Shown here in pieces: positions 3,659 through 48,454 of a DNA stretch of 64,000 nucleotides. Position 1 is the first letter of the stretch. Each line of letters begins with the position of its first letter. A program made the position numbers and the translations under genes. This DNA comes from Segatella oris. GTDB taxonomy: Bacteria > Bacteroidota > Bacteroidia > Bacteroidales > Bacteroidaceae. The stretch is taken from assembly GCF_900637655.1 (NCBI RefSeq), contig NZ_LR134384.1, positions 3,091,001 through 3,155,000 on the forward strand. The letters run 5' to 3'. Under the pieces are notes generated by a model. That model ran no database searches and was not told where the DNA came from. It was given only the letters and a program-made list of their open reading frames with translations.

Positions 3659-3731
3659 CTGAGTCAAAACACACAGTCATCTCATGCGAATTGCAAGGCA
3701 ATTTGACGCAAAAGGCAAGGCTTTTCTGCGT
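3659..3731. repeat. 22-bp-phased array, degenerate copy
   Basis: Related heptamers occur 22 bp apart: CTGAGTC at 3659, CTCATGC at 3681, TTGACGC at 3703 and TCTGCGT at 3725. The third unit matches the core seen in the other arrays; the rest are weak. The exact phasing is what links it to the family. Confidence 0.5.
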
Positions 3732-3834
3732 GATTTCACCTCTTTATTTGCTTCGAATTTCATAATAGCTTGATAGACAGAGTGTTGCAAACTATTAAAA
3801 AACAGCACGTATTTGGACCGAAGATGTCTTTCAT

Positions 3835-3870
3835 TTCAAATACGCGAGTATAGCGAAGGCTTTTGTAAAG
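3835..3870 (+). repeat. CAAATACGCGAG intergenic element, copy 1
   Basis: TTTCAAATACGCGAGTA followed by GCGAAGGCTTTTGTAAA. The same order of motifs recurs near 12172 and, more degenerate, near 41412. An inverted pair of the core lies at 43379-43423. Confidence 0.55.
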
Positions 3871-4010
3871 TTTCTTGGGGAAATACAAATTATACCTTCT
3901 TATATGCAATTATATGAGACGATTTGCAGCCTTTTTGTTAACATTCGGATAGGAAATACCGGATAAGGCGACAGACTTTCCGCATTCAAATGTATGTAGA
4001 AAAGTTTGAT

Positions 4011-5864
4011 TCAGCCGGCAAACTCGGCAGTTTCTCCTTGAGGTTGCGCCGTCGAAAGGCCGTCTATCTCTTTCAATACGCCTTTCAACAGATACGTTGC
4101 ATTTTGATTTCGTGCTACGCCTGGCGTGATTTTATAGGAATAGGTAACTGCCGTTCCGAGTTCAATCTCAAAGCAATAGTTGCTGAAATGGCGGGGATAT
4201 TCGTTTGCAAGCTTTGAAAGTTCAAGGTCGTGTGTGGCGATAAGGCCCGTAACGGGTAATTTGCAGATGTTCTCCAAGAAGAGTCTTGAGCCGTTGAGCT
4301 TGTCGAGTGAATTCGTCCCTTTCAGTATTTCGTCGAGGATAATGAGTGTAGACGGACTTTCGGCAGGCTTCCCTTGGACATAAACAGGGTGTTTGCAGAA
4401 GCGTATGAGCTGTTGCAAGCGTCGCAGTTCGGCGTTGAAATACGAGATGCCTCCTGCCAGATCATCCGTCGTGCGCATGCTGCTGAAGAGGTTGAATGAG
4501 GAGGTTCGCATTCGTTTTGCAAACACCGGAGCACCGTTTCTGGCCAGAATATAGTTGATACCTATGGTTCTTAGGAACGTACTTTTACCTGCCATGTTCG
4601 CTCCGGTCACAATGGTATAACTGCCATTTTCAATCGAAAAGTCGTTCTTGACGGCTTTTGTTCCGAGGAAAGGATGATAGATTTCCTCTGCTTCAAAACA
4701 GACCTTCTGTTCTGTCGTGACTTCTGCTGTGGTGGTTTCCGGGTGATTATAGGCGAAACGTCCCCACGAAACGAGGGCGTCAATATGGCTTAATGCCTTG
4801 ACTTGAGCGGCAATTTGTGCTTTAAAATCATGTTCCCAACGCAAGTATTCGCGTATGAGGAAGTAGTCGTTCAGCCCAAATGTGTCGATAATCATCAGTC
4901 CTAAGATGTTTCCCCTGCGGTCAAGTCGGTTGATGATACTTGTCAATAGTGCAGCCTGTTGGCGGGCATTGCGCAGCGTGTCGACCTCTTTCTGCAGGGA
5001 AAGTGGCAGGTCGTGCAGGCTGACACATTGCTTGATGAGTTGTTGAAAGCCCTCTGCCTCGCGATGAATTTTGGCAGTTCGCTTGGCAATATTACGGGTT
5101 GCAGCGTTGCAGGCAAGGTAGACGATGAAGAATTGCAGGGTGGCATAGAAGACAGGGACATTGCCTTCGATGAGTCCGAAGAGTGAAAGAATGATGAGTA
5201 AAGGCAGCAGGCAGAGCATCAGAGAGGCCACAATGAGCGACCAACGCGTGGAGAACCACCTTGGACATGATGCTTTCGAAAGCTCGTTTTGCAAGGCGAG
5301 CATGGCCAAGGTGTCAATGGTTTGCCCTTCTCCCAAGGCTTGAAAGTTGTCCATGAAGCTGACTTGGTGGCTCATATAATGGATTTCCTTGGGCTGAAAC
5401 TGTATCTCTTCAAATGAAAGATTGCGTGCCAACAAAGCTTTTCCGCCTGTGGTCACCGTGCGGTTGAGGCGTGCAAAGAGTGAGTTTTGCCCGAAAACAT
5501 CGAGGTCAAAGGTAAAAGGATGATGATAATCCATGAAGTCTTGTCCGCTGTCAAAGGCTGAATAGTTGCCTTCAATGGCTTCTAATTCGTGCGTATAGAC
5601 GGCAAGTAGTTGCTCTGTCTGCTTGATAGTGCTTGCGTTTTTGTTGTCGAAAAAGCGCGTAAATAGGTATGCTGAAAGGCAAATCACAGCCATCAGAAGG
5701 CCTGATTTGCTCCATGCTGTCATGGCAAAAACGGCAATCGAGGCAACGATAAGCATGAAAAGGGCTATTTCACCCACGATAAAATAACGGTTGTAACGTT
5801 TCAGTCGGCTGATGACAGCGGTCATCTTGGCCTTTTGTTCAAGGTAGTGTTTTTGATTTTCCAT
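4011..5864 (-). CDS. Membrane-anchored MutS-family ATPase
   Basis: A P-loop protein of the MutS superfamily, about 617 aa from the ATG at 5864; an upstream in-frame ATG at 5915 would overlap the previous gene further. The C-terminal half carries MutS ATPase motifs: Walker A TGANMAGKS near residue 421, Walker B STLIILDE near 505, then KGTNSLDK and the ATHDLELS switch. Unlike mismatch-repair MutS, it lacks the mismatch-binding N-terminus and has hydrophobic, membrane-like segments near residues 35-75 and 205-255. Such MutS-like membrane proteins are seen in Bacteroidota; their substrate is unknown to me. A role in post-replicative repair should not be assumed. It overlaps the upstream secreted-protein gene by 26 bp, so the two are probably cotranscribed. 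Confidence 0.85.
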   Translation of the reverse strand: MENQKHYLEQKAKMTAVISRLKRYNRYFIVGEIALFMLIVASIAVFAMTAWSKSGLLMAVICLSAYLFTRFFDNKNASTIKQTEQLLAVYTHELEAIEGNYSAFDSGQDFMDYHHPFTFDLDVFGQNSLFARLNRTVTTGGKALLARNLSFEEIQFQPKEIHYMSHQVSFMDNFQALGEGQTIDTLAMLALQNELSKASCPRWFSTRWSLIVASLMLCLLPLLIILSLFGLIEGNVPVFYATLQFFIVYLACNAATRNIAKRTAKIHREAEGFQQLIKQCVSLHDLPLSLQKEVDTLRNARQQAALLTSIINRLDRRGNILGLMIIDTFGLNDYFLIREYLRWEHDFKAQIAAQVKALSHIDALVSWGRFAYNHPETTTAEVTTEQKVCFEAEEIYHPFLGTKAVKNDFSIENGSYTIVTGANMAGKSTFLRTIGINYILARNGAPVFAKRMRTSSFNLFSSMRTTDDLAGGISYFNAELRRLQQLIRFCKHPVYVQGKPAESPSTLIILDEILKGTNSLDKLNGSRLFLENICKLPVTGLIATHDLELSKLANEYPRHFSNYCFEIELGTAVTYSYKITPGVARNQNATYLLKGVLKEIDGLSTAQPQGETAEFAG

Positions 5865-6381
5865 CGTTTTCAGTTGTCGGATTTGGGTCCGGTGTGTATT
5901 TCTCAACAGCCTCATGAGCCTTTTTCATGACTTTACCTGATAGTTTACTGCGTTTTTCAAGAAACCACAGAAAGTTCATTCCGGAGGGTGATGTCGGCTT
6001 GAGAAGCGGATCTTTACTGATGACCGTAGACGCGTTTACAGGGTTGGAACTCATGATACTGGGGGCTTTTGCCGTGATAACGACCGTGTTAATCGTGATA
6101 GCTTTAGGCAAGAGCAACACCGTGTCCTTTATATTGGTCAGATTTAATGTGCGGTTTACGTAGCTGTTATGCGAGAAAGTGACGCTCCGCGAAGCCCTGT
6201 CAGTAATGGTATAATGGCCTTGTCGGTCGGTCATATACATTTTGTTGGTGTTCGTGTAGACTTTAACGCCTGCTAAAGGTTGGCGAGTTTCCATGTCAAG
6301 AACCACGCCGTTACGTTGCGCCATGCCCTGAATGGCTGTCAGAATCAGTAGGAGTGTAAGAAAGAAATACCTGATTTTCAT
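5839..6381 (-). CDS. Secreted carboxypeptidase-regulatory-like (beta-sandwich) domain protein
   Basis: A 180-aa protein with a signal peptide (residues 1-21, ending GMAQ). Residues 23-100 look like a CarboxypepD_reg/CNA-B type beta-sandwich, as found at the N-terminus of TonB receptors: NGVVLDMETRQPLAGVKV, then a Tyr-rich strand and DRQGHYTI. Here it stands alone with a basic, low-complexity C-terminus. It probably acts in the periplasm or at the outer membrane, but no partner can be named. It is first gene of a two-gene unit with the MutS-like gene and has a -7 box TATCTTTG on the minus strand at 6424-6431. Confidence 0.75.
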   Translation of the reverse strand: MKIRYFFLTLLLILTAIQGMAQRNGVVLDMETRQPLAGVKVYTNTNKMYMTDRQGHYTITDRASRSVTFSHNSYVNRTLNLTNIKDTVLLLPKAITINTVVITAKAPSIMSSNPVNASTVISKDPLLKPTSPSGMNFLWFLEKRSKLSGKVMKKAHEAVEKYTPDPNPTTENDGKSKTLP

Positions 6382-6423
6382 TTTCCGTTCTTGTTACTTG
6401 ATAGAAGATTTCAACCTTTTCTG

Positions 6424-6431
6424 CAAAGATA
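6424..6431 (-). promoter_or_regulatory. Promoter of beta-sandwich protein / MutS-like unit
   Basis: Minus-strand -7 box TATCTTTG, about 40 nt before the start codon. No clear -33 TTTG was found at the right spacing. Confidence 0.5.
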
Positions 6432-6640
6432 AATATAAAATATTGAAGGCCATAAAAGCTTCCCCGAGTTTATGTTTTCTTATCTTTTTTTGAATTTTTG
6501 ATGCACGATGAAAGGGAGAGAAGATAGAGTTGATGAGCAAAGCTGAAAGTCAATGGCTGTCAAGGTTAGGCATCAGGGGTGATGTTCGTTAAATAACACA
6601 AAAACCGGTAAACTTATTTCGTTTTTCAATATCTAAGGTG
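6432..6640. other. Divergent intergenic region
   Basis: Lies between divergent promoters for the beta-sandwich/MutS-like unit and the OmpA-family gene. Nothing else was recognised; the 22-bp arrays are absent here. Confidence 0.5.
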
Positions 6641-6690
6641 TATATTTGCAATATCGAATAAATGGATTATCAATTAAAAAGAGAGGAATA
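6641..6690 (+). promoter_or_regulatory. Promoter and RBS of OmpA-family gene
   Basis: A -7 box TATATTTG at 6641-6648 and, unusually for this window, a good Shine-Dalgarno-like AGAGAGGA a few bases before the ATG at 6690. A strong RBS fits an abundant envelope protein. Confidence 0.6.
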
Positions 6691-7544
6691 TGAAAAAAAA
6701 CGTATTTTTACTTACAATGGTGGCCGGAGTGCTTCTCATAAGCAGTTGTGCCAGCAAGAAAGATCTGGAGAACTGTCAGAATGAAAACCGCGAATTGACT
6801 GCCAATTATCAGAACACGAAGGAAGAACTTGCTGCGAGCAAGGCACGCGTTGCAAGTCTTGAAGAGCAGTTGGCGCAGCAAAAGAAGAATGTTGCAGCAT
6901 TGCAAAACGCTCTCGATAAGAGTCTTGTGAATGCTAATGCCAATAACATCAATATCTCAAAGCTGGTAGATCAGATCAACGAAAGCAATCAGTATATCCG
7001 CCATTTGGTTGAGGTGAAGAGTAAGAGTGACTCTCTCAACATGGTACTTACCAATAACTTGACCCGCTCGTTGAGTCGGGAAGAGATGAAAGAAGTTGAT
7101 ATTAAGGTGCTCAAGGGAGTTGTCTATATCTCTTTGGCCGATAACATGCTCTATAAGAGTGGCAGTTATGAGATCAATGATCGTGCCGAAGAAACGCTTA
7201 GAAAGATAGCTAAGATCATCATGGATTATAAGGATTATGACGTACTTATTGAGGGAAATACTGACAATGTGCCTGTCAATACGAAGTCAGCGGCAATGAA
7301 GAACATCCGCAACAATTGGGATCTCTCTGCTTTGCGCGCTTCTTCTGTTGTGCAATATCTGCAGGATCGCTTTGGGGTTGCACCGAAACGACTCACTGCC
7401 GGAGGCCGAGGAGAATACAATCCTGTTGCTTCCAATGACACGGAATTGGGCAAACAGCGCAACCGCCGTACCCAGATTATCATCACTCCGAAGCTCGATC
7501 AGTTCATGGATTTGATTGATAAAGCACCTGAAGAGAAGAAGTAA
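6690..7544 (+). CDS. OmpA-family peptidoglycan-binding lipoprotein
   Basis: A 284-aa outer-membrane lipoprotein. The signal peptide ends in the lipobox LISSC (Cys20). A Gln/Ala/Leu-rich coiled coil follows (about residues 28-110, with heptads such as ARVASLEEQLAQQKK). Residues 145-265 form an OmpA C-terminal domain with YEINDRAEETLRKIA and the peptidoglycan-contact region TDNVPVN...LSALRASSVVQYL, ending in GKQRNRRTQIII. The layout of lipid anchor, coiled-coil spacer and peptidoglycan clamp suggests it tethers the outer membrane to the wall. It is monocistronic, with its own promoter and an intrinsic terminator at 7571-7610. Confidence 0.9.
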   Translation: MKKNVFLLTMVAGVLLISSCASKKDLENCQNENRELTANYQNTKEELAASKARVASLEEQLAQQKKNVAALQNALDKSLVNANANNINISKLVDQINESNQYIRHLVEVKSKSDSLNMVLTNNLTRSLSREEMKEVDIKVLKGVVYISLADNMLYKSGSYEINDRAEETLRKIAKIIMDYKDYDVLIEGNTDNVPVNTKSAAMKNIRNNWDLSALRASSVVQYLQDRFGVAPKRLTAGGRGEYNPVASNDTELGKQRNRRTQIIITPKLDQFMDLIDKAPEEKK

Positions 7545-7570
7545 ACCCTGTATTGAGATTTGAATATAAA

Positions 7571-7610
7571 AAGGAGCAAAGTTGAAACATCAGCTTTGCT
7601 CTTTTGTTTT
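7571..7610 (+). terminator. Intrinsic terminator after OmpA-family gene
   Basis: Stem GAGCAAAG (7574-7581) pairs with CTTTGCTC (7594-7601), followed by TTTTGTTTT. Confidence 0.85.
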
Positions 7611-7725
7611 ATCCTTTTGTATGGTTTTAATGATGTTCTGTCTGCAGGCAAGTATAACTTTGATAGAAGCTTGCTGCAAGTAAAATTTCCCTCTTTTGGG
7701 GAGGGCAGTAGGGGATGTTCTCGCC

Positions 7726-9150
7726 CTATAGTAACGGACTCAGCAACCTCACAATGCTTTCCCAAAGTCGTAAGAAGAAAGAACGATGTGTGAAATCACG
7801 TATTTCTTCGATGTCAACACAATCCTTTTCATCTTTCAAATAGATTTCCTTGATGCGTAAAGCCATGTCTTTATCATAGAAGAAAACATTGCATTCGAAG
7901 TTGTTCTCAAAACTTCTGAAGTCGATGTTCGTACTGCCACAAGTGCAGAGATGATCATCACTTACCATCAGTTTTGAATGATTGAAGCCTGCTTTATAAA
8001 GGAAAACCTTGGCTCCCGCCTCTACAATCTCACCCAAATATGACTTGCATGCCCACTCCACAAGCTTGGCGTCGCCGTGCATGGGGATTATCAGTCGCAC
8101 GTCAACTCCCGACAAAGCAGCTGTCCGAATGGCGAAAAGTATGGGTTCGGTAGGCAGGAAATAGGGCGTTTCCATATACACATAATGCTTCGCTTCAATA
8201 AGAATGCGCACATAACCTTGCATGATGTCAGGCCATGGTTGAATGGGACTGCTCGTTACAATCTGCGCCAGACAGTTGTTTCTTTCAATGTGTGTATTCT
8301 CCGGATAATAGCGGTGGTCGGCCAGCAATGTGCGTGCAACGAAGTACCAATCTATCAGGAATGCACGCTGCATGGAATAGACAACGCTACCTGTGATGCG
8401 CATATGGGTGTCGCGCCAAGGCTGTCCTTTAGTGCCTTTTACATAGCGCATAGCGATGTTCATGCCACCGATGAAGCCTGTTTCTCCGTCGATAACGCAT
8501 ATCTTTCGATGGTTACGATAGTTCACCTTGCTTGTCAAAGCCGGGAAACGCACGGGAATAAAGGGCTTCACTTCTATTCCTTCGCGCTTCATTCTATTGA
8601 AGAATTTGTCGCGAACATTCCAACAACCTACGTCGTCATAGATAATCCTAACCTCAACCCCTTGCCTCACTTTGTCAATCAACGCATCAGCAATGAGCAT
8701 GCCGAGCGGGTCGTCATCAAAGATATAAGTATCGATATGGATGTGGTCTTGTGCCCTTCCGATAGTGCGGAGCAGCGCAAGAAAGAAATCACTTCCATGG
8801 GTGTAGATGTCTGCATTGTTGTCTTTGAAAGGCAAAGCCATGCTCTGATTGGCAAAAAGATGCATCAACTGGCGTGCGTTTTCAGGCAGATGCAGGTTGC
8901 GTTGTTCCGTGAATTCAAGCATACTTCGCTTCGTCAGTTCGTCCAAACTGTGCTGACTGATGAAGTGTTGTCTGCGGTAATTCTGTCCAAAGAAGATATA
9001 AATGATGATGCCTACTATCGGGATGAAAGAAAGCACCATGAGCCAAGCTACAGTCTTTGCAGGCTGCCGATTGTCCATCAGAACGGCTATCATGGCCAGT
9101 ATGACACTGATAGTGTAGATGCTTACTATAATCCAATGCAGATAAGACAT
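7726..9150 (-). CDS. cls: Cardiolipin synthase, phospholipase D type
   Basis: Joins two phosphatidylglycerol molecules to cardiolipin at the inner membrane. The 474-aa length is typical of the family. Two N-terminal transmembrane helices (residues 5-27 and 34-55) are followed by two HKD motifs: NHRKICVID near residue 211 and FNHSKLMVSDD near 389, the latter with CGSTNIDFRS. It is the last gene of the dnaG-queD-queE-cls run; its ATG directly abuts the queE stop, so translation is probably coupled. A long antisense frame over this gene is a shadow. Confidence 0.95.
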   Translation of the reverse strand: MSYLHWIIVSIYTISVILAMIAVLMDNRQPAKTVAWLMVLSFIPIVGIIIYIFFGQNYRRQHFISQHSLDELTKRSMLEFTEQRNLHLPENARQLMHLFANQSMALPFKDNNADIYTHGSDFFLALLRTIGRAQDHIHIDTYIFDDDPLGMLIADALIDKVRQGVEVRIIYDDVGCWNVRDKFFNRMKREGIEVKPFIPVRFPALTSKVNYRNHRKICVIDGETGFIGGMNIAMRYVKGTKGQPWRDTHMRITGSVVYSMQRAFLIDWYFVARTLLADHRYYPENTHIERNNCLAQIVTSSPIQPWPDIMQGYVRILIEAKHYVYMETPYFLPTEPILFAIRTAALSGVDVRLIIPMHGDAKLVEWACKSYLGEIVEAGAKVFLYKAGFNHSKLMVSDDHLCTCGSTNIDFRSFENNFECNVFFYDKDMALRIKEIYLKDEKDCVDIEEIRDFTHRSFFLRLWESIVRLLSPLL

Positions 9151-9723
9151 TTATTGAAAACCAATCATTTTGTGGGTTTGCAGACTCAGACGCCACTTGG
9201 GATGTGACGCTATATAACGGATACAAGCCTGCGTAATGGCCCTGTTCTGAACGTCGTTGCCCACGTCACAGGGTTGCAGATAATAGTAGTCGGCCTCAAT
9301 TCCGAGGTCATCAACAGGTTTTTGTCCGTCGAAAATGCACTTCAGTTCGTTGCATTCGGTAACAACGACATGCTCTTTCGGCGATATGGTCAGCCAGTCG
9401 AGATTGGGCGGGGGCACGTTTGTTCCGTTGGATTCCATGGCTACATAGAAGTCTTCGGCATGCAAGGCATCAATCAGTTTGCTGTCGACTTGCAGCGTGG
9501 GTTCGCCTCCGGTGAGCACCACGAAGCCTGCCGTTTTCCATTCTCTGACAGCATCAACGATAGCCTCGGCCGTCATTTCGTGATACAATTTGAAATCAGT
9601 ATCACAGAAACTGCACTTCAAGTTGCATCCGCTGAAACGGATAAACACTGCTGCACGGCCCGTGTTTCGGCCTTCGCCTTGCAGTGAGTAGAAGATTTCA
9701 TTGACCTTATACGTCTTCTTCAT
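9151..9723 (-). CDS. queE: 7-carboxy-7-deazaguanine synthase (radical SAM)
   Basis: Converts 6-carboxytetrahydropterin to 7-carboxy-7-deazaguanine in queuosine synthesis. The 190-aa protein opens with FYSLQGEGRNTGRAAVFIRF and the radical-SAM cluster motif C-NLK-C-SF-C (CxxxCxxC) at about residues 33-40, followed by the SAM-binding VLTGGEPTLQ. It overlaps queD by 17 bp, so the two consecutive pathway steps are encoded together. queC and queF are not in the window. Confidence 0.95.
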   Translation of the reverse strand: MKKTYKVNEIFYSLQGEGRNTGRAAVFIRFSGCNLKCSFCDTDFKLYHEMTAEAIVDAVREWKTAGFVVLTGGEPTLQVDSKLIDALHAEDFYVAMESNGTNVPPPNLDWLTISPKEHVVVTECNELKCIFDGQKPVDDLGIEADYYYLQPCDVGNDVQNRAITQACIRYIASHPKWRLSLQTHKMIGFQ

Positions 9724-10042
9724 ACGTGGCTATATTTCCATCACTTTCCTGCACAGTGGCCTTATAGCAGGTAGGAATCTGCTCGGTTATCCAGCGTGCA
9801 ATGTTCTCGGCTGTAGGGTTGAAAGGCAGCACTTTGTTGATATCGGCATGGTCAAGTCGGCCATGAATGAGGCGCTTTACTTCTGAAAAGTCAGCCACCA
9901 TGCCGTCTTTGTTGAGCTCACGTGCCTTGCAGAACACCGTGATGTGCCAGTTATGACCATGCACATTGCTGCATTTACTCTTGTAAGAGAGGGTCAGATG
10001 GTGTGAGGCTGATACCTCGAAACTCTTTTGTATGTAATACAT
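9707..10042 (-). CDS. queD: 6-carboxy-5,6,7,8-tetrahydropterin synthase
   Basis: Makes the QueE substrate from dihydroneopterin triphosphate. It is 111 aa, typical for QueD. Zinc ligands are seen as SASHHL and VHGHNW. DFSEVKRLI, LDHADIN and NPTAENIARWI are family hallmarks, and the catalytic Cys lies in SKCSNVHGH. It starts 21 bp after the dnaG stop and overlaps queE. Confidence 0.95.
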   Translation of the reverse strand: MYYIQKSFEVSASHHLTLSYKSKCSNVHGHNWHITVFCKARELNKDGMVADFSEVKRLIHGRLDHADINKVLPFNPTAENIARWITEQIPTCYKATVQESDGNIATYEEDV

Positions 10043-10063
10043 ATCCTGTTCTTTTCGGTTAGT

Positions 10064-12235: not shown

Positions 12236-12278
12236 AAAGCTTTCTTGGAGTTTGTTTTCGTTGTAATTGGGTGCTGAT

Positions 12279-12373
12279 TTGACGCAAATTGTTGGCTGAT
12301 TTGAGGCAAGTTACACTTCATTTTGACGCATCTTGGCTTACGAAATGCACCATATTGCGGCGTGTTTTGACGC
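12279..12373 (-). repeat. 22-bp-phased array, five units
   Basis: Heptamers begin at exactly 22-bp steps: TTGACGC 12279, TTGAGGC 12301, TTGACGC 12323, ATGCACC 12345 (degenerate) and TTGACGC 12367. The flanks vary, but the core GATTTGACGCAAAT approaches a perfect dyad (ATTTG-ACG-CAAAT). Confidence 0.75.
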
Positions 12374-12727
12374 AAATGGCGTGATAAGTCGATTGCTATG
12401 GGCAGATGAATAGCTGCAAATGAGTGCAAAATGGGCACTTATGTGACTTCTGTTTTCCTGGAAGGTGTTTCTGAAAGTGGGTGTTTTTTTACGATTTATC
12501 TTTACAAAAAGGATTGGATTTTCAAGGAGTAGTGCGGGCTGTTGTTTGTAAATTCACTCACATTTCGGCCTTCATGAACTCATGTTCTTCGTCTTTCGGG
12601 ATTGCAGCATGCTGTCTGCGGTTTTGCAAAGTGGGAGAAATCATAGAGAAAAAGGATGCTTTTTGTGGTTTCGGCACTGTTTTTGCTGTGTATGACAGCG
12701 TATTAATCGTATTGGGATAATAAAGAT

Positions 12728-21409: not shown

Positions 21410-21708
21410 TGAAAAATAATCAAAAAACATGACAATAAGAATTGTTCCGCATGGTTCTGTTTTTCCATAAACAGCAAATTGTCTTCTCACATGAATGCTT
21501 CAGTCATGTCATTTGCATCATTTCGTCTTGCCATCTAAGGCATATTGCAGTGTGTTTTGCGTCATTTTATCTTGCGATTTGACGCATATTACACACTGAT
21601 TTGACGCATATTGAATGCCTTCTTGGAAGGAGTAACAAAAAAGGGAAAACCAAATTGCGGTCTTCCCTACGGCAAAGATAATCATTTTTTGAGGCAAATG
21701 CAAATGGA
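21410..21708 (-). repeat. Long intergenic element with promoter-terminator head and 22-bp array, copy B
   Basis: Read on the minus strand, this matches 30822-31130 throughout. An ATTTGCATTTGC block comes first, then -7 box TATCTTTG, CCGTAGGGAAGACCGCAAT, the closing stem arm GGTTTTCCC and a T-run. A five-unit 22-bp array follows (minus-strand cores at 21601, 21579, 21557, 21535 and 21513), then a shared tail with AAAAACAGAACCATGC and TTGTCATGTTTTTTGATT. Similarity stops abruptly on both sides. No open reading frame is conserved between the copies. Confidence 0.8.
21632..21680 (-). ncRNA. Mini transcription unit: promoter directly followed by terminator (copy B)
   Basis: -7 box TATCTTTG (minus strand), then stem GGGAA-G-ACC against GGT-T-TTCCC and TTTTTTG. 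The predicted RNA is only about 35 nt. Conservation of both the promoter and the hairpin in copy A argues that the unit is selected or was copied as a whole. Confidence 0.5.
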
Positions 21709-30821: not shown

Positions 30822-31130
30822 CAGTTGATTTGCATTTGCTTAGAAAATTGATTACCTTTGCCGTAGGGGAAGACCGCAATGTGGTTTTCCCTTTTTTGTT
30901 ATGCCTTGCAGAATGGTTTGCAATATGCGTCAAATCAGCGTGTCATATGCGTCAAGTTATATGCTGAAGTGACGCAAAATGCACAGCAATATGCCTTAGA
31001 TTGAAGGGCGAAATGATACGAATGACAGGACAAAAGCATTCATTTGGGAAGATAATTTGCAGTTAATAGAAAAACAGAACCATGCAGAATAACTCTTGTT
31101 GTCATGTTTTTTGATTATTTTTATTTATTT
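30822..31130 (+). repeat. Long intergenic element with promoter-terminator head and 22-bp array, copy A
   Basis: Matches 21410-21708 in inverted orientation. The order is ATTTGCATTTGC, -7 box TACCTTTG (30853-30860), hairpin and T-run, then array cores at 30927, 30949, 30971, 30993 and 31015 (exactly 22 bp apart), and the tail AAAAACAGAACCATGC with TTGTCATGTTTTTTGATT. The fourth unit is GCCTTAG in both copies. The two copies diverge in sequence but keep their spacing. Confidence 0.8.
30853..30900 (+). ncRNA. Mini transcription unit: promoter directly followed by terminator (copy A)
   Basis: -7 box TACCTTTG, then GGGGAAGACC-GCAATGT-GGTTTTCCC and TTTTTTG. The predicted transcript is about 35 nt. 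It matches copy B, with differences in the loop. Confidence 0.5.
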
Positions 31131-37637: not shown

Positions 37638-38206
37638 GTTTTCAGCTTCGTTTGAATGTATTTTGTTATGGATGAATTCCAATGCAATATTCGGAATTTT
37701 CTCTGGAATACGCAAGTTTTGGAGGCGAATAAATGTGTAATAAGCATAATGCACATGGAAAACGGATTGTTTTTATCAGTTAGAATGGACTTCTATGAGG
37801 GGTGTTGAAGATGTAGTTTGTGTTATTTTAGCCCGTCATCTGCGTCAAGTGACACGCTAACTTGCGTCAAATGACACGCTAACTTGCATCAAATGACACG
37901 CTGATCTGCGTCAAATCAGCATGTAATTCGCCTTATATTGCAAGGCTGTTCGTAATGTGTTGAGATGCAGGTTGATACAAATTTCAGACTGATTTGTTGG
38001 ATGAGGTATGTGGATTGTAAATCAATTAAATGATAATGTTTTACGTATTACATATTGATTAAATGTTTTCTGTTTTGAAAACAAAAACAAATCATGTTGT
38101 TTTCAAAGTTTTCCAAAAATTTTTGTAATATATTGATAACTAACAACTTGACATTTATTAACACGCAAAAAGTTGTCCAAAACGATTAACTTATATATTT
38201 ATATGC
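37638..38206. other. Divergent intergenic region upstream of nrdD
   Basis: Contains the clearest 22-bp tandem array of the window (37839-37948) and then a long A/T-rich run (38010-38200) leading to the nrdD promoter. No gene was recognised. AT-rich sequence next to the array would fit binding by an oxygen or redox regulator, but no known FNR-type site was identified. Confidence 0.5.
37839..37948 (+). repeat. 22-bp tandem array, five units (best copy)
   Basis: Adjacent 22-bp units start at 37839, 37861, 37883, 37905 and 37927. The first three share TGCRTCAARTGACACGCT almost perfectly; the fourth has TGCGTCAAATCAGC; the fifth is GCCTTATATTGCAAGGC, itself an inverted repeat. The units touch each other with no spacer. 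Confidence 0.9.
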
Positions 38207-40510: not shown

Positions 40511-40531
40511 TGCTGTATTTTTGTTTGGAAA

Positions 40532-42119: not shown

Positions 42120-42124
42120 TTTAT

Positions 42125-42206: not shown

Positions 42207-42229
42207 AACAATAAAAATAAAATATCGGG

Positions 42230-43264
42230 ATGCCTGAAAAGAAAAATACAGGAACATCGTATGAAACGATAATGCGTGACTTGAAAGCACGCAATTTTTC
42301 ACCTATATATATATTGATGGGTGAAGAATCCTATTACATTGATAAGATTTCAGATTATATTGCAGATAATGTGCTGAAGCCGGAAGAGCGTGATTTCAAT
42401 CAAACTATAGTGTTTGGCTCTGATGTTTCGGCCTCACAAATCGTGGATTCTGCCAAGGCTTTTCCAATGATGGCCGAGAAACGGGTTGTGATAGTGAAAG
42501 AATCACAGAACTTGAAAGGTACGGAACCTTTGGAAAAATATTTCAAAAATCCAGTTCCTTCCACGGTTCTTGTCTTTTGTCATAAGAATGGAAGTATTGA
42601 TAAAAGAAAGAAGATTATTCCAGCTGCACAGGCAGGTGGCGCTGTGATTTTTGAGAGTAAGAAACTTTATGAGCGCGAATTGCCTGGATTTATTGAAACT
42701 TATTTGCGGCAGCATCAAGCCACAGTAGAACAGAAAGCTGCCCAGATGATTGCCGATCATGTGGGAGCTGACTTGAACAGATTGACTTCTGAACTTGATA
42801 AGGTCTTGATTTCTTTGCCTGCATCTGACAGGAGGGTAACCCCTGATGTGGTTGAAAAGGAAATAGGAGTCAGTAAAGATTTCAATGCTTTTGAACTACG
42901 AAATGCAATCGTTCAGAGGGATATTTATAAGGCGAATTTAATTATAAAATATTTTGACAACAATCCCAAAGCAGGATCGTTGTTTTCATTTCTCCCAATG
43001 CTCTTTTCTTATTTCGAAAATCTGATGATAGCATTTTATTCGCCAAATAAAAACAATGAAAATGCTGTTGCGGAGTTCCTGGAATTGAGAAATGGGTGGG
43101 CTGCCAGAGACTATCTTACAGGGATGCGAAACTACTCGGGAATGAAAACGATGCAGATAATTTCTAAAATAAGAGAAATAGATGCCAAAAGTAAAGGTCT
43201 TGATAACCCAAATACACCTCCGGGAGAGTTAATGAAGGAGCTGATTTTCTTCATTTTGCACTAA
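42230..43264 (+). CDS. holA: DNA polymerase III subunit delta
   Basis: The clamp-loader subunit that opens the sliding clamp. The 344-aa length is normal. Recognisable parts are SPIYILMGEESYYIDKISDYI at the start, AFPMMAEKRVVIVKES, KKLYERELPGFIETYL, and the domain III helix MIADHVGADLNRLTSELDKV. FNAFELRNAI and the C-terminal KSKGLDNPNTPPGELMKEL are typical of the Bacteroidota form. It is monocistronic, ending at a terminator. Confidence 0.93.
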   Translation: MPEKKNTGTSYETIMRDLKARNFSPIYILMGEESYYIDKISDYIADNVLKPEERDFNQTIVFGSDVSASQIVDSAKAFPMMAEKRVVIVKESQNLKGTEPLEKYFKNPVPSTVLVFCHKNGSIDKRKKIIPAAQAGGAVIFESKKLYERELPGFIETYLRQHQATVEQKAAQMIADHVGADLNRLTSELDKVLISLPASDRRVTPDVVEKEIGVSKDFNAFELRNAIVQRDIYKANLIIKYFDNNPKAGSLFSFLPMLFSYFENLMIAFYSPNKNNENAVAEFLELRNGWAARDYLTGMRNYSGMKTMQIISKIREIDAKSKGLDNPNTPPGELMKELIFFILH

Positions 43265-43297
43265 AAACACCCTTTTTCTACCTCTTTTTTCTCTAAA

Positions 43298-43327
43298 ACG
43301 AGCACTCTTGAAGGGTGCTTTTTTTAG
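43298..43327 (+). terminator. holA terminator
   Basis: AGCAC-TC pairs with GGGTGCT around TTGAA, followed by seven T. Confidence 0.85.
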
Positions 43328-44039
43328 GCTTAAATCATTATAAATAAGCATTTTAACCTGTTTTTACCCCCTCTAAAACTCGCGTATTTTCAAAATATAA
43401 ACCCCTCGTTCAGAATACGCGAGCTATGGCGTTTTTAGCCAATTTAAGCCCCCTTGAATTTAGAGTTAACTTTTATTTGCGTTTATAATAATAAACTTTA
43501 CGATACTAAATTACAACGGCGGCACCATGTATTTATGTATATAAATATTATATTTGTGTTTGTATAAATATATTCTTGTTTTTAGTTGCAATATGTAAAT
43601 GTATATATTTAGATATCAATTCTTATATGCATATATATGTTTCATATTATAATTTAACATAATAGCTTTGATATTCAGTGATTTATACAGTTTTTTCAAA
43701 TCAAATATCAATATAAACGCCTCGATTCTTATTTCTATATTGCATATCCATATAGATCTTGTTTAATACCAATAAATATCTATCTATAAACCAATAACTT
43801 TACTATACTTTGCTATATAAAGCATTATATAGTATTTTGACTTGTAAATTTAGTTTTGTATTTTATATAGCTGTTCCGTCACATGTGTATATGTAGAATT
43901 GTAAACTTTACAAATTAAAACATAAATTCTTTGATTCTAAATTTAATATACAATTGTTGCGTATCTCATTTTTTTGTTTTACTTTTGTAAAATCAATGAA
44001 AATTAGGGTAAAGTTCCCTTTTTTGCATGTTATAAGCTT
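43328..44039. other. Very AT-rich intergenic region before the XRE gene
   Basis: After an inverted CAAATACGCGAG-type pair at 43379-43423, about 400 bp (43480-43900) consist of A/T-rich TATATAAATA-like sequence with no open frame of interest. A -7 box TACTTTTG for the XRE gene is near 43980. Confidence 0.5.
43379..43423. repeat. Inverted pair CTCGCGTATT / AATACGCGAG
   Basis: CTCGCGTATT (43379-43388) and AATACGCGAG (43414-43423) form a perfect 10-bp inverted repeat with a 25-nt loop. The right arm is the core of the CAAATACGCGAG family, and the following sequence (GCGTTTTTAGCC, TTGAATTTAGAGTTAAC) resembles copy 2 at 12172. Confidence 0.65.
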
Positions 44040-44507
44040 ATGAAAGATAGAATTAAAATGATTATGGAGAGTCAACACATGACTCAGCAAACCTTTGCTC
44101 AGTTCATACAAATCTCCCCTGCTTCACTCAGCAGTATCTTCAATGGGAGAACCAAACCGACCTTGGCTATCGCTGAAGCTATTAAGGCGAAGATACCATC
44201 TTTGTCTACCGACTGGCTTTTGTTTGGTTCAGGATCCATGTATATGGGAGATAAATCTGCATCTGATTCCGGGACAACTGATAACACTTCTGTGCCTCAG
44301 GAAGGCTTGGTCGATTTTCCAGGAGCTTCTAACTCCTCCACTCCAACACTTTTTGATCAAGATGTTGTGCACGGTGTTGGAGCAACACTCAATAACACTA
44401 AGAAAATAACTACGAAAATAATTGACAATCATCAGCGTAAAATTGTAGAAATAAGAGTCTTTTATGATGATAAGACTTGGGAGACTTTTGTTCCTCAAAA
44501 AGGTTAA
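44040..44507 (+). CDS. XRE-family helix-turn-helix regulator
   Basis: A 155-aa protein. Residues 1-65 are a Cro/C1-type helix-turn-helix (MTQQTFAQFIQISPASLSSI, then FNGRTKPTLAIAEAI and LSTDWLLFG). A Ser/Thr-rich linker follows (about 66-115), then a basic C-terminal strand region (KIVEIRVFYDDKTWETFVPQ). No phage genes are nearby. Its stop is 60 bp before the pyrK ATG, but pyrK has its own promoter in the gap, so a regulatory link is only possible. Confidence 0.88.
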   Translation: MKDRIKMIMESQHMTQQTFAQFIQISPASLSSIFNGRTKPTLAIAEAIKAKIPSLSTDWLLFGSGSMYMGDKSASDSGTTDNTSVPQEGLVDFPGASNSSTPTLFDQDVVHGVGATLNNTKKITTKIIDNHQRKIVEIRVFYDDKTWETFVPQKG

Positions 44508-44532
44508 GTGTTTGTCGATTTAGTTTTTTTTC

Positions 44533-44540
44533 TTATCTTT
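44533..44540 (+). promoter_or_regulatory. pyrK-pyrD promoter
   Basis: -7 box TATCTTTG, with about 20 nt of leader to the ATG at 44567. Confidence 0.6.
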
Positions 44541-44566
44541 GCATAAATCTAAATGCAAAAGCAAAG

Positions 44567-45343
44567 ATGAAGAAATTCATTCATGATCTGACGGTTAAGT
44601 CAGTAGAGGCACTTAGTTCTAAGCACGTGCTTTTGAAGCTTACGTCTGATAGTCCTCTACCGACAATAACGCCAGGACAATTTGTCGAAGTCCGAGTTGA
44701 TTATTCTCCGTCAACCTATCTTCGGCGTCCAATTTCAATAAACTTAGTAGATTATCAGCAAAATGAACTGTGGCTTCTCATTGCCATGATTGGTGATGGA
44801 ACGCGACAGTTAGGAAAACTCCATGTCGGAGATACGCTGAATTGTCTTTATCCTTTGGGAAACGGTTTCACACTCCCTACGGATCCGAGTGAAAACATGC
44901 TGTTGGTTGGTGGCGGTGTGGGGGTAGCTCCACTGCTTCATTTAGGACATGAAATTAAAGAAAGAGGTGGAGAACCCTCTTTCCTGTTGGGTGCCCGCAC
45001 TAAAGATGACCTGTTAGAGCTTGACCTGTTTCAGCAACTTGGGCATGTCTATGTGACGACAGAAGATGACAGTTTGGGCGAGAAAGGTTTTGTAACAGAC
45101 CATTCAGTTCTCAAAAAAGAAAAGTTTTCGCGTATAGCTACCTGTGGGCCTAAGCCAATGATGATCAGTGTAGCGCGTTATGCACATGCAAGAGGCATCG
45201 AATGTGAGGTGTCTTTAGAAAATAAAATGGCGTGCGGATTGGGTGCTTGTCTATGTTGTGTTGAGAAGACAACAGAGGGTAATTTATGCGTCTGTAAAGA
45301 GGGACCGGTGTTAAATATTAAGAAGTTATTATGGCAGATCTAA
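44567..45343 (+). CDS. pyrK: Dihydroorotate dehydrogenase B, electron-transfer subunit
   Basis: Passes electrons from PyrD to NAD+. It is 258 aa from the ATG at 44567. FAD-binding [16 protein letters not shown]-binding [16 protein letters not shown] and a C-terminal [2Fe-2S] cluster with Cys in [13 protein letters not shown] and VCKEGPV are all visible. It overlaps pyrD by 13 bp, matching the usual PyrK-PyrDB pair. Confidence 0.95.
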
Positions 45344-46236
45344 ATGTAAAAATAAATAACTTAAATTTCAAGAACCCTGTAATGACTGCTTCAGGGACCT
45401 TTGGGTACGGTCTTGAGTTTGCAGATCTTGTACCACTTGATGAACTTGGAGGTATCATCGTAAAGGGTACGACATTACTTCCGCGCGAAGGGAATGATTA
45501 TCCTCGTATGGCCGAAACAGCCAGTGGGATGCTCAATTGTGTTGGATTGCAGAATAAAGGTGTCGATTATTTTTGTTCAAAGATCTATCCACAGATTAAG
45601 GATATTGACACGAACATGATTGTCAATGTGAGTGGAAACAGTGCTGAGTCGTATGCTGCATGTGCTCAACGGATAGATGAACTCAATCGTATTCCTGCCA
45701 TTGAACTGAATATCAGCTGTCCGAATGTGAAAGAAGGAGGCATGGCTTTCGGTGTGACCTGTGAGGGGGCAGCAAGCATTGTCAAGGCTGTCAGAGCCGT
45801 ATATCACAAGACATTGATTGTGAAGCTCTCTCCGAATGTGACGGATATTGCTGCAATTGCCCGCGCTTGTGAGGCAGAAGGAGCTGATGCCGTCTCGTTA
45901 ATCAATACCTTAATGGGTATGGCTGTGGATATTGAAAAGCGACAACCGCTGTTGAGCATTCGTACGGGAGGATTGAGTGGTCCTGCCGTGAAGCCTGTAG
46001 CTTTGCGTATGGTTTATGACGTGGCCCATGCAGTAAAGATACCCGTGGTAGGCTTAGGAGGCATCAGCAGTGCAGAGGATGCGATTGAATTTCTGATGTG
46101 TGGTGCCACAGCTATAGAGATAGGAACAGCTAATTTTGTAGATCCTGCGATTACGAAAAAGGTGAAAGACGGAATGAATACCTGGCTGGATTCCCATGGC
46201 TGCACCAGTGTCAGGGATATTATTGGTGTCATTTGA
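45331..46236 (+). CDS. pyrD: Dihydroorotate dehydrogenase B, catalytic subunit
   Basis: Oxidises dihydroorotate to orotate in pyrimidine synthesis. The 301-aa FMN barrel shows [27 protein letters not shown], the active-site Cys in [26 protein letters not shown], and the FMN phosphate site [21 protein letters not shown]. It is class 1B because it is paired with pyrK. The start overlaps the pyrK end. Confidence 0.96.
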
Positions 46237-46280
46237 CCGTAATAATGGCGTACAATATGTGGCGTTCCAATAAAAAGCAT

Positions 46281-46288
46281 TAACTTTG
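46281..46288 (+). promoter_or_regulatory. slyD promoter
   Basis: -7 box TAACTTTG with a leader of about 24 nt to the ATG at 46318. Confidence 0.6.
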
Positions 46289-46317
46289 TAGAATAATCAT
46301 ATATAATAATAGGTATA

Positions 46318-46917
46318 ATGGAAAATAAAATCAGCAAATATATTGCTGCTTCATACACGCTGTATGATGTGACAGAAGGCAAGAAAGAAGTGATAGAACA
46401 GACCGTTGATAAACGTCCTTTCGATTTCCTGAGTGGCTTCGGTATCACTATTCCTGCATTCGAGGAGGCCTTGGTTAATCTTAACAAGGGTGAACATTTT
46501 GATTTCACGCTCACTCCCGACCAGGCTTATGGAGACCATAATCCAGAGCATGTGCTTGATCTTGACAAGTCAATCTTCAGTGTCAATGGTAAGTTTGACG
46601 ATGAACATATAGTTGTAGATGCTGTCATTCCACTTCAAAACGAAGATGGAAACCGCTTCAACGGCCACGTACTTGCCATTTCAGAGGATAAGGTGAAGGT
46701 GGATCTCAATCATCCGTTGGCAGGCAAGACCTTGAATTTCGTTGGTGAGATTGCTGAAAACCGCGAGGCGACAAATGAGGAAATCTCCAAGTTTATGAAT
46801 ATGCTCAGCGGTGAAGGTGGTTGCAGTGGCTGCGGAGGTGGCTGTGGCGAAGGTGGTTGTGAAAGCGGCGGTGAAGGCTGTTGCGGTGGCAGCTGTGGTG
46901 GCGGTTGCCATGAATAG
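46318..46917 (+). CDS. slyD: SlyD-like FKBP-type prolyl isomerase with Cys/Gly-rich tail
   Basis: A 199-aa peptidyl-prolyl isomerase and chaperone. The FKBP part (residues 1-70 and 125-150) surrounds an insert-in-flap domain (about 71-120). Features are RPFDFLSGFGITIPAFEEAL, LTPDQAYGDHNPEHV and VDLNHPLAGKTLNFVGEI. The C-terminal 33 residues hold eight Cys in a Gly-rich setting and only one His, whereas E. coli SlyD has a His-rich tail. The tail should bind soft metals, so a metallochaperone role is plausible. aroC follows after 15 bp. Confidence 0.92.
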   Translation: MENKISKYIAASYTLYDVTEGKKEVIEQTVDKRPFDFLSGFGITIPAFEEALVNLNKGEHFDFTLTPDQAYGDHNPEHVLDLDKSIFSVNGKFDDEHIVVDAVIPLQNEDGNRFNGHVLAISEDKVKVDLNHPLAGKTLNFVGEIAENREATNEEISKFMNMLSGEGGCSGCGGGCGEGGCESGGEGCCGGSCGGGCHE

Positions 46918-46932
46918 GATGAAAAAACAGGC

Positions 46933-48012
46933 ATGATGAGAAACACTTTTGGCAATATATTCACGCTCACTACCTTTGGTGAAAGTCACGGTGTGGCTGT
47001 GGGAGGCGTTGTTGATGGTATGCCTGCCGGCATAGCTATCGACATGGAGTTCATCCAGAACGAACTGAACCGTCGTCGACCGGGCCAGAGTAAAATTACT
47101 ACAAGCCGTGCTGAACCGGACAAGGTAGAGTTTTTCAGTGGTGTCTTTGATGGTAAATCCACTGGAACACCAATCGGTTTTGCTGTCTACAACACTAATC
47201 AGCACTCGAAAGACTATGACAACATGCGTGATTTATTCCGCCCTTCGCATGCCGATTTCACGTATTATGCAAAATATGGGCTACGCGATCATCGTGGTGG
47301 TGGTCGTTCTTCGGCCCGCATCACCATAGCCCGCTGTGTGGCAGGAGCCTTGGCCAAGCTTGTGCTCCGCAAGCTGAATATCAGTGTCAGAGCTTATACT
47401 TCGCAAGTGGGAGACATTGCGCTTGACCACGATTACCGTCATTACGACCTCAACACCACAGAAGATAATATCGTTCGCTGCCCGGATCAGGAGATGGCTG
47501 CACGCATGGCAGCACTCATTGCACAGGTAAAAGCAGAGGGAGACACCATTGGTGGCGTTATCAGTTGCGTCATTCAAGGTTGTCCTGTAGGACTCGGAGA
47601 ACCGGAGTTCAGTAAACTTCATGCCCAGTTGGGAGCCGCCATGCTCGGTATCAACGCCGTGAAAGGCTTTGAATATGGTATGGGTTTTGCGGGAGTGGGA
47701 CAGCGTGGCAGCACCATGAACGATGCTTTTGTGTCACATCATGGCCAGATTTCAACGGTAACCAATCACAGTGGAGGAATTCAAGGAGGCATCAGCAATG
47801 GCGAGGATATTTATTTTCGCGTTGCATTCAAGCCCGTAGCTACGCTTCTCATGCCACAACAGACCGTTGATATCCAAGGTCATTCTGCAACGATAGATGT
47901 CCGTGGGCGTCATGATCCCTGCGTATTGCCGAGAGCAGTCCCTGTTGTTGAAGCTATGGCTGCTATGGTAATATTAGACAATTATCTTCTGAATTTGACC
48001 ACAAAAGTATAA
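46933..48012 (+). CDS. aroC: Chorismate synthase
   Basis: Makes chorismate from EPSP with reduced FMN. It is 359 aa, typical. Signatures are [18 protein letters not shown] at the start, [27 protein letters not shown], the [10 protein letters not shown] motif, and [13 protein letters not shown] [21 protein letters not shown] near the end. Two adjacent ATG codons exist; the first is used here. It is probably cotranscribed with slyD. Confidence 0.96.
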
Positions 48013-48073
48013 AAAGAGTAATTTTTTTTACTTATTTTATACTTGAATTGTTTGCTTTTTGCATAAAAGGTAT

Positions 48074-48185
48074 TATTTTTGTATCGGCGATTACGAAGTT
48101 CGTGAGAATGGATAATCGTCTTAGTTAAGTCTAGTTTAGTTTTTGTGTTGGTTGAGGGCAGTCAATTGGCTGCCCTCATTTTTTG
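48074..48185 (+). ncRNA. Candidate small RNA downstream of aroC
   Basis: A -7 box TATTTTTG (48074-48081) is followed about 100 nt later by a strong terminator, GAGGGCAG (48154-48161) against CTGCCCTC (48170-48177) and then ATTTTTTG. No open frame lies between. The unit could be a free-standing RNA from about 48088 to 48185. The hairpin also ends the slyD-aroC transcript if read-through occurs. Confidence 0.55.
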
Positions 48186-48359
48186 TGGAGGAAAGACCGA
48201 AAGAGACTGAAAAGATATTGCACACAGGATGAAATTCTAAGTTTTCCCTATTTCATGTAAACATTGCTTTCTATCTTTATTCAATTCGTTAATAATCAAG
48301 AAGTTATGAGTTTTGAATGGAATTGTGTGGCAATATGCTGTAGAAAAGCGTTGTTATCT

Positions 48360-48454
48360 GCGTCAAATCACCTCGCCATCTGCATCAAGTTAGCACGTGT
48401 TTTGAGTCAAAATGCGGTGTAATCTGCATCAAGTTATCGCGTTGAATGACGCAA
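48360..48454 (+). repeat. 22-bp-phased array, five units
   Basis: Heptamers at exact 22-bp steps: GCGTCAA 48360, GCATCAA 48382, GAGTCAA 48404, GCATCAA 48426 and GACGCAA 48448. The sequence before the core, ATCTG, recurs in three units. Confidence 0.85.

What the first reader, a model, noticed from the sequence alone, without database searches (positions are those of the whole stretch)
3659..48454. A family of intergenic arrays locked to a 22-bp period
Seven intergenic regions (3.7, 12.3, 21.5, 30.9, 37.8, 41.2 and 48.4 kb) carry the core TGCGTCAAAT or its complement at steps of exactly 22 bp, three to five units each. I checked unit positions one by one, for example 30927, 30949, 30971, 30993, 31015 and 48360, 48382, 48404, 48426, 48448. 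Degenerate units keep the phase although the bases between them vary, so the spacing is better conserved than the sequence. The core tends towards the dyad ATTTG-NNN-CAAAT. Four of the seven lie between divergent genes. This is compatible with cooperative binding of a dimeric protein on nearly one face of the helix (about two turns per unit), such as a nucleoid or regulatory protein. It could also be a degenerating non-autonomous repeat. I know of no named element of this kind.
Basis: partly seen in the sequence, partly recalled or inferred. Interest (0 to 1): 0.85.

Follow-up and report, generated by a model that had tools for sequence, protein, structure and literature searches.

The report
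Genus-wide 22-bp intergenic dyad arrays
Gut and oral bacteria related to Prevotella carry, between their genes, many short DNA arrays whose two-helical-turn spacing stays fixed while their letters differ from species to species, which suggests docking strips for an unidentified DNA-binding protein.

Summary
In a 27% sample of the genome, 71 of 351 intergenic regions carry an array, against 1 of 351 shuffled. Exact TGCGTCA cores pair at 22, 44 and 66 bp and almost nowhere else. Genome-wide there are 326 pattern matches against 38 for a reversed control. Each unit has two pseudo-dyads 11 bp apart, and 57 of 71 arrays have 4 or 5 units.

Many arrays sit inside dispersed ~300-400 bp intergenic repeats. 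Other species of the genus have 22-bp dyad arrays with unrelated cores; P. bivia has GTAAAAG-RTNAY-CTTTTAC, 3-5 units. One locus compared across species gave no sign of positional conservation. Dyad arms pair worse than randomly re-paired arms, which argues against hairpins. Genes beside the window's arrays are functionally unrelated, and in tandem gaps arrays lie mostly nearer the preceding gene's end.

Best reading: double-stranded binding platforms for cooperative dimers, carried by dispersing elements, with species-specific sequence. The binder is unknown and binding was not shown. I found no description in print in the nine searches made.

The parts
3604..3721 (.). Array A1, about 4-5 units of 22 bp, between tandem genes (MutS domain V gene end and PurL-type gene start)
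   Evidence: profile 65.9 bits; genes
3501..3898 (+). Main-family dispersed element containing A1
   Evidence: nhmmer 282.0 bits; alignment
12265..12423 (.). Array A2, divergent genes (dnaG-type and NDH-2-like)
   Evidence: 87.3 bits
12109..12512 (-). Main-family dispersed element containing A2 (diverged copy)
   Evidence: 107.6 bits; not in alignment A2
21474..21625 (.). Array A3, divergent genes (rlmN-type and glycosyltransferase-domain gene)
   Evidence: 83.2 bits
21411..21707 (+). Second-family dispersed element containing A3; 84% identical over 295 bp to the A4 element, inverted
30908..31060 (.). Array A4, divergent genes (peptidyl-arginine-deiminase family and a 201-aa ORF without a Pfam hit)
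   Evidence: 86.3 bits
30828..31122 (-). Second-family dispersed element containing A4
37812..37996 (.). Array A5, highest-scoring in the window, divergent genes (phosphoesterase and nrdD-type); its flanks had no relative in the sample
   Evidence: 106.5 bits
41152..41305 (.). Array A6, convergent genes (nrdG-type and HSDR_N-domain gene)
   Evidence: 78.1 bits
41046..41493 (+). Main-family dispersed element containing A6; 28 matches in the own genome with 22 of 154 candidates scored
48348..48460 (.). Array A7, 5 units, tandem genes (chorismate synthase end, TonB-dependent receptor start)
   Evidence: 85.2 bits
48265..48592 (-). Element containing A7, assigned to the main family by profile only; with the array masked its flanks joined no cluster
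   Evidence: 198.4 bits over model 10-336; singleton
59080..59211 (.).
   Evidence: 49.1 bits

Best explanation
The arrays are double-stranded DNA binding platforms. Each 22-bp unit has two pseudo-dyads 11 bp apart, so the array reads as alternately oriented 11-bp half-sites, one per helical turn. The likely occupant is a dimeric protein (or a pair of proteins) that binds neighbouring half-sites cooperatively and forms a defined complex of 4-5 units, about 110 bp. The arrays travel as the core of dispersed intergenic repeats. Each species has its own core sequence, so binder and site have probably changed together while the geometry stayed fixed.

SHOWN: the period, dyads, unit number, intergenic position, dispersal (in the own genome) and difference of cores between species. 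INFERRED: that a protein binds, that binding is cooperative, and that site and binder co-evolve. NOT KNOWN: which protein it is, and whether its job is nucleoid structure, insulation between transcription units, or the element's own spread.
For: - Exact 22-bp lock: core pairs at lags 22:30, 44:24, 66:14; intergenic self-match also stands out at 22, 44, 66, 88, 110 and 132, beside the short lags that composition raises.
- Pseudo-dyads 11 bp apart in own species and P. bivia. In other species 26 of 37 arrays exceed the 95th percentile of a column-permuted dyad control.
- Similar size with unrelated sequence: 57 of 71 own arrays have 4-5 units; 18 of 20 in P. bivia, counted as length/22.
- Units are not fresh tandem copies: identity 0.559 for adjacent units, 0.508 between arrays.
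- No hairpin covariation: dyad arms pair below re-paired controls, own z -4.8 and -4.0, P. bivia z -2.8 and -1.6.
- Half-sites look tuned: exactly one G/C in the four-base word in 446 of 674, 296 expected.
- Lag-22 segments in 39 of 328 gaps of 23 genomes of the genus; other lags (44 apart) average 1.3.
Against: No binder was found: genes beside the window's arrays are diverse, and no protein family recurs beside arrays in more than 3 genomes sampled. No positional conservation was seen at nrdDG, the one locus compared. Much of the abundance could be element dispersal rather than selection on the array. The half-site word rule could partly reflect shared founder words, because copies are related. 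Arm anti-complementarity in own units comes mainly from the core (z -7.8); the outer words alone give z -1.5 each. By the dyad measure own arrays are only modestly above control (0.474 against 0.415, sd 0.100). Fold energies are below shuffles (own mean z -2.1; others -4.0), so an RNA role is not excluded. In P. bivia only 6 of 20 arrays share flanks with another. A 22-bp pitch is not exactly two turns at 10.5 bp. The profile was trained on the same gaps it scored, so profile counts lean high; the exact-word test does not share that.
Confidence: 0.5

Rival explanations
1. Purely selfish: the array is the recombinase or transposase docking site of a non-autonomous mobile element (as multiple 22-bp TnsB sites sit in Tn7 ends, recalled), and has no role for the host.
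For: With arrays masked, 40 of 71 array gaps fall in one single-linkage flank cluster and 8 in another; 27 copies cover most of the main-family model. Homologous units have sharp ends against unrelated flanks, e.g. the 379-bp pair at 86%. One element query found 28 matches in the own genome. No shared position at nrdDG in relatives.
Against: In the main family the array lies inside the element, roughly 90 bp from one end and 180 bp from the other, not at the ends. No terminal inverted repeats or consistent target duplications were seen by eye in the pairs printed. 23 of 71 arrays have no flank relative in the sample. No autonomous partner was identified; only Y1 transposases were searched for.
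Confidence: 0.25
2. REP/BIME-like elements: single-stranded hairpins recognised by a Y1 (RAYT) transposase, present in the genome.
For: Own genome has 2 intact and 1 broken Y1_Tnp genes, with arrays on both sides of two of them and on one side of the third. Intergenic, palindromic, sequence differing between species, biased away from gene starts in tandem gaps. Own core often reads CGTC before a dyad, as in CGTC-tagged REPs (PMC3733652, section 6 read).
Against: Dyad arms are less complementary than re-paired arms in two species. Homology among the Y1 copies ends at or before the arrays, and the Y1 regions have their own short repeats. 17 Y1 loci of other genomes (7 in the genus, P. bivia included; 10 in the order) show no lag-22 segment in the 3-11 kb fetched. 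G012 and G016 have arrays but no Y1 hit. The P. bivia consensus lacks CGTC. Gaps over 600 bp carried arrays in 43 of 61 anyway.
Confidence: 0.1
3. Arrays act in RNA, as multi-hairpin ends that protect or terminate transcripts.
For: Fold energies are below shuffles (own mean z -2.1, 67 of 142 strands below -2; other species -4.0, 49 of 74). In tandem gaps 28 of 35 lie nearer the upstream gene's end.
Against: No compensatory pairing: excess mutual information at separations of 4 or more is at most 0.08 bits against 0.49 for neighbours, and arm complementarity is below re-paired controls. No Rfam match to the arrays at gathering scores.
Confidence: 0.08
4. Ordinary minisatellites made by replication slippage, with 22 bp by descent.
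For: Some arrays in relatives have near-identical neighbouring units (L069, L071). Adjacent own units are slightly more alike than units of different arrays (0.559 against 0.508).
Against: Unit number is 4-5 in 57 of 71 and adjacent units are nearly as different as units of different arrays. Unrelated sequences share exactly 22 bp in many species.
Confidence: 0.04

Closest known systems
BrickBuilt minisatellite-MITE of Porphyromonas gingivalis (PMC4596501; search listing and passages seen)
   Same: Short tandem repeats inside dispersed, always intergenic elements; P. gingivalis is in the same bacterial order (recalled)
   Different: 23-nt repeats with one consensus and as few as 1 unit, leader and tail with small inverted-repeat ends; 19 copies in one strain. 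Here 22 bp, dyad-symmetric, mostly 4-5 units, no inverted-repeat ends seen, unrelated cores per species
REP/BIME/REPIN elements with RAYT transposases (PMC3733652 passages and section 6; PMC2817692 and PMC3116915 listing only)
   Same: Intergenic, abundant, palindromic, alternating orientation, differing between species
   Different: REPs are 20-40 bp hairpins with paired stems, most with GTAG or CGTC tags; here arms do not covary and the pitch is fixed at 22 bp
Centromere-like and iteron repeat arrays (ParR/parC, plasmid iterons; recalled, no call)
   Same: Tandem sites about one or two helical turns apart, bound cooperatively into a curved filament
   Different: Those are one or few loci per replicon beside par or rep genes; here about one array per 12 kb of chromosome beside unrelated genes
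Nucleoid-protein or Lrp/MetJ-type phased operator arrays (recalled, no call)
   Same: Phased dyads, multimeric binding, complex of about 100 bp
   Different: Known cases are regulated promoters; here arrays are not centred on promoters and cores differ between species

Membership tests
REP/RAYT (REPIN, BIME) | Palindromic arms that pair as a hairpin | tested here: not met
   Arm complementarity below re-paired controls in own species (z -4.8, -4.0) and P. bivia (z -2.8, -1.6); fold energy alone is below shuffles
REP/RAYT (REPIN, BIME) | GTAG or CGTC tag at one end | tested here: not met
   CGTC occurs in TGCGTCA cores of own arrays but many cores lack it, and the P. bivia consensus has neither tag
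REP/RAYT (REPIN, BIME) | Cognate Y1 transposase flanked by the repeats | tested here: inconclusive
   Own Y1 genes have arrays nearby, but homology ends at or before the arrays and 17 Y1 loci elsewhere show none
BrickBuilt | 23-nt repeat of consensus AGAYCATARTATCCTCTCRTRTG | tested here: not met
   Period 22, different consensus (paper passage)
MITE | Terminal inverted repeats and target-site duplications | tested here: inconclusive
   Not seen by eye at the ends of the three element pairs printed or in the alignment; no empty site in a close strain was available
Minisatellite/VNTR | Variable unit number and homogenised neighbouring units | tested here: not met
   4-5 units in 57 of 71; adjacent identity 0.559 against 0.508 between arrays; strains of one species not compared
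CRISPR array | Identical repeats separated by unique spacers, cas genes | tested here: not met
   Units contiguous and degenerate; none of the 20 window genes examined had a Cas family hit
Iteron origin or par centromere | Adjacent rep or par gene, one or few sites per replicon | tested here: not met
   71 arrays in 864 kb; the 14 genes examined beside window arrays have no rep or par hit
Cooperative operator array of a dimeric protein | Specific protein bound | not testable with these tools
   No binding data; candidate not identified

The most novel reading that the evidence does not exclude
A genus-wide chromosomal system in which hundreds of 110-bp nucleoprotein platforms with a fixed two-turn, two-dyad geometry punctuate long intergenic regions, mostly away from promoters. 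Binder and site change together so fast that each species, and sometimes one genome, has its own cores; only the 22-bp ruler and the 4-5 unit size are conserved. It would be a bacterial counterpart of rapidly evolving repeat-bound chromatin.
Probability: 0.3. Interest if true: 0.92.

Novelty: categorically new. Interest (0 to 1): 0.8.

Why it matters
Repeats are normally recognised by sequence. Here the conserved quantity is a length, 22 bp, together with a dyad layout and a unit count, while the sequence differs between species. If a protein reads it, that protein is probably abundant, is unidentified, and is widespread in a major gut and oral genus, and would define a new layer of chromosome organisation there. 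If instead it is an element's own docking site, it is a new type of dispersed element whose binding site outlives its flanks. Either way the question is directly testable in cultured type strains such as P. bivia DSM 20514.

Tried and rejected
Strand polarity along the replichores: the first pattern listing suggested it, but that was a listing cut-off; sampled stretches show both orientations mixed. A coding origin for the right end of the main element: the 29-aa reading has 56 places genome-wide at E up to 10 (25 at E 0.01 or better), no stop-free frame exceeds 83 aa, and there is no codon-position bias, so it was rejected. A regulon: Pfam on 20 window genes, 14 of them beside arrays, gave unrelated functions. 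A recurrent neighbouring gene: none beside arrays in more than 3 genomes. Positional conservation at nrdDG: of 7 relatives fetched, a 22-bp segment with another core was found in 1, about 0.8 kb upstream of nrdD; at least two loci (L172, L174) end before the upstream gap, so they say nothing. RAYT as the binder: weakened. Faster divergence of arrays than flanks: 75 pairs compared; mixed (of the 8 pairs with flank identity above 0.8, the array is lower in 5 and higher in 3), so not used. An own exact 27-mer in GTDB contigs and in viral contigs: 0 each; the own genome may be left out of those collections' answers.

Left out of the 39-of-328 count: stretches chosen around profile hits, four stretches on contigs with profile hits (G205, G185, G170, G223: 1 array in 27 gaps) and G273 (0 in 3 gaps).

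Literature. PMC4596501 was seen as listing and passages, PMC3733652 as listing, passages and section 6; all others as search listings only. None of the listings or passages that I saw describes these arrays; only open-licence PubMed Central papers are held.
Full report
OBSERVATION. The exact core is missing from the 41.2-kb array, which has variants only, and an eighth degenerate array lies at 59080-59211. My gene calls put four arrays between divergent genes, one between convergent genes and two between tandem genes.

CHANCE. The window lies in a 3,168,212-bp single-contig genome. I took 40 stretches of 20 kb plus the window: 864 kb, 27% of the genome, some of it masked. In 351 intergenic regions (118,854 bp), TGCGTCA or its complement occurs 103 times against a mean of 10.4 in 20 dinucleotide shuffles. 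Pairs fall at lag 22 (30), 44 (24) and 66 (14), with at most 1 at any other lag up to 70. Coding DNA (641 kb) has 57 occurrences and no pair within 70 bp. Genome-wide, the two-unit pattern with up to 3 mismatches has 326 matches against 38 for the reversed pattern. A cyclic 22-bp profile, trained on these same regions, finds arrays in 71 of 351 regions and in 1 of 351 regions shuffled once each.

ANATOMY. Each unit has two pseudo-dyads 11 bp apart: TTTG-MSK-CAAA and TTAC-NNN-GTAA. Units per array are 4 in 21, 5 in 36, 6 in 5, 7 in 5, and 1-3 in 4 of 71. Median length is 120 bp, quartiles 111.5 and 133.5. Strong units (over 9 bits) number 300 in phase and 21 out of phase. Adjacent units are 0.559 identical, non-adjacent units in one array 0.525 and units of different arrays 0.508, so most are not fresh tandem copies.

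LOCAL RULES. Excess mutual information is concentrated in neighbouring columns, up to 0.49 bits, and is at most 0.08 bits at separations of 4 or more. Half-site words such as AGTTAC, GATTAC, CTTTAC, AATCAC and AATGAC carry exactly one G or C in the four-base block in 446 of 674 cases against 296 expected from the columns. At the two central variable positions, A/G (102), C/T (99) and A/T (78) dominate while C/G occurs 6 times in 337 units. Arms of a dyad match worse than when re-paired at random: z -4.8 and -4.0. Most of that comes from the core (z -7.8); the outer words alone give z -1.5 each. P. bivia, with a different core, shows the same sign: z -2.8 and -1.6. Hairpin function predicts the opposite. 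Tuning of duplex half-sites, or avoidance of perfect palindromes, fits; relatedness of copies may contribute. Against this, fold energies are below dinucleotide shuffles (own mean z -2.1; other species -4.0).

SETTING. Arrays are in long gaps. Of gaps of 300 bp or more, arrays are in 19 of 30 convergent, 16 of 37 divergent and 33 of 75 tandem ones; in tandem gaps 28 of 35 lie in the half nearer the upstream gene's end. Twenty window genes were examined, 14 of them beside arrays; they include purine synthesis, primase, ribonucleotide reductase, chorismate synthase and TonB-receptor genes. No regulon is apparent.

DISPERSED ELEMENTS. With the array masked, flanks of 40 of 71 array gaps join one single-linkage cluster and 8 another; 23 have no relative in the sample. 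Some links in the large cluster run through other repeats, such as those beside the Y1 genes, so it is not all one element; 27 copies cover most of the main-family model. The main element is about 390 bp with the array inside. In the window it holds A1, A2 and A6, and by profile A7, whose flanks alone did not cluster; A5's flanks have no relative; A3 and A4 belong to the second cluster, 84% identical over 295 bp in inverted positions. I saw no terminal inverted repeats or consistent target duplication in the three pairs printed. A 29-aa reading of the right end recurs in 56 places at E up to 10 and shows no codon-position bias, so it is not taken as coding.

OTHER SPECIES. In 59 other genomes (35 of the genus) the own pattern has at most 11 matches each, mostly near control level. 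A sequence profile matched 58 of 299 same-genus genomes, the own genome included, with 14 candidates scored per genome. The loci printed showed 22-bp arrays with other cores. In stretches not placed for arrays (23 genomes of the genus; my script's label says 22; several genomes were picked knowing that the profile hit them elsewhere), 39 of 328 gaps have a lag-22 segment and 25 a lag-44 segment. Other lags average 1.34, the largest being 10 at lag 14. In the 18-genome set alone, 17 of 142 gaps and 11 of 18 genomes are positive; 7 of those 11 are not among the 58 profile-positive genomes listed. There lags 14 and 21 also rise (9 and 11 gaps at the lowest threshold), probably 7-bp repeats. Four further stretches gave 1 array in 27 gaps and one gave 0 in 3. 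Dyad symmetry exceeds the 95th percentile of a column-permuted control in 26 of 37 arrays. Four genomes of other families gave 0 of 65 gaps, a small sample. One array appeared among 16 gaps from three other genera of the same family, so the limit of the system is not fixed.

NAMED SPECIES. A pattern from G010 found 52 places, 51 of them intergenic by my calls, in P. bivia DSM 20514 (17) and 11 other record sets, nearly all titled Prevotella or Prevotellaceae. In P. bivia the unit is GTAAAAG-RTNAY-CTTTTAC-NNN with 5 units in 12, 4 in 6 and 3 in 2 of 20 arrays, counted as length/22; most of these loci were fetched by that pattern, and 6 of the 20 share flanks with another. P. nigrescens (5 of 16 gaps at the lower threshold) and Prevotella oral taxon 299 (2 of 23) also have 22-bp arrays in the 50 kb taken. 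At nrdDG a segment was found in 1 of 7 relatives, elsewhere in the upstream region; some loci were too short to judge.

MECHANISM. A length rule, two dyads 11 bp apart in the two species profiled, and a usual count of 4-5 units, held across unrelated sequences, point to a ruler set by a protein lattice on duplex DNA. I infer cooperative dimers on a 110-bp platform. The binder is unknown and binding was not shown. Dispersal of the surrounding elements means that a purely selfish docking site is the main rival.

REP/RAYT CHECK. Y1 transposase genes exist (2 intact, 1 broken) with arrays beside them. However, their shared DNA (95.8% over 925 bp between the two intact copies) ends at or before the arrays and the regions contain their own short repeats, and 17 Y1 loci in other genomes, 7 of them in the genus, show no 22-bp array. 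Gaps over 600 bp carried arrays in 43 of 61 anyway.

NOVELTY. Nine literature searches gave no description of such arrays in what I saw. The nearest are BrickBuilt (23 nt, P. gingivalis) and CGTC-tagged REPs, each failing a defining feature. Subscription papers are not in the library, so an unseen description is possible.

Noticed in passing
L201:6863-7324, L202:2052-2513, L203:5038-5235 (own genome): Two near-identical Y1 transposase genes (IS200/IS605-like, below NCBIfam's cut-off) and one broken copy, with short repeats around them: a probable REP/RAYT system.
   Followed up: partly
window 59080-59211: Eighth, degenerate 22-bp array upstream of the rRNA operon.
   Followed up: yes
L074:1413-1676, L078:1337-1583: Contiguous 22-bp arrays made of different unit types, in L074 with inverted-looking outer blocks; about 11-12 units in all.
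   Followed up: no
L101:3203-3886 and L101:13395-14133 (G145): 22-bp arrays of purine-rich units adjoining a second unit type; long AC dinucleotide runs in the same genome.
   Followed up: no
Genus sample L147-L166: Self-match at lags 14, 21 and 35 in some relatives, probably a separate class of 7-bp-based repeats.
   Followed up: no
L223 and L255: Records titled Bacillota MAG carry P. bivia-type arrays; possibly Prevotella DNA under a wrong title.
   Followed up: no
G392, L280:6999-7221: A 22-bp array of near-perfect palindromes (TTCTTTTGTACAAAAGAA) in another genus of the family.
   Followed up: no
own genome, stretches near 2.48 and 2.88 Mb: Masked runs of N (8,000 and 8,500 bases in the stretches taken).
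   Followed up: no
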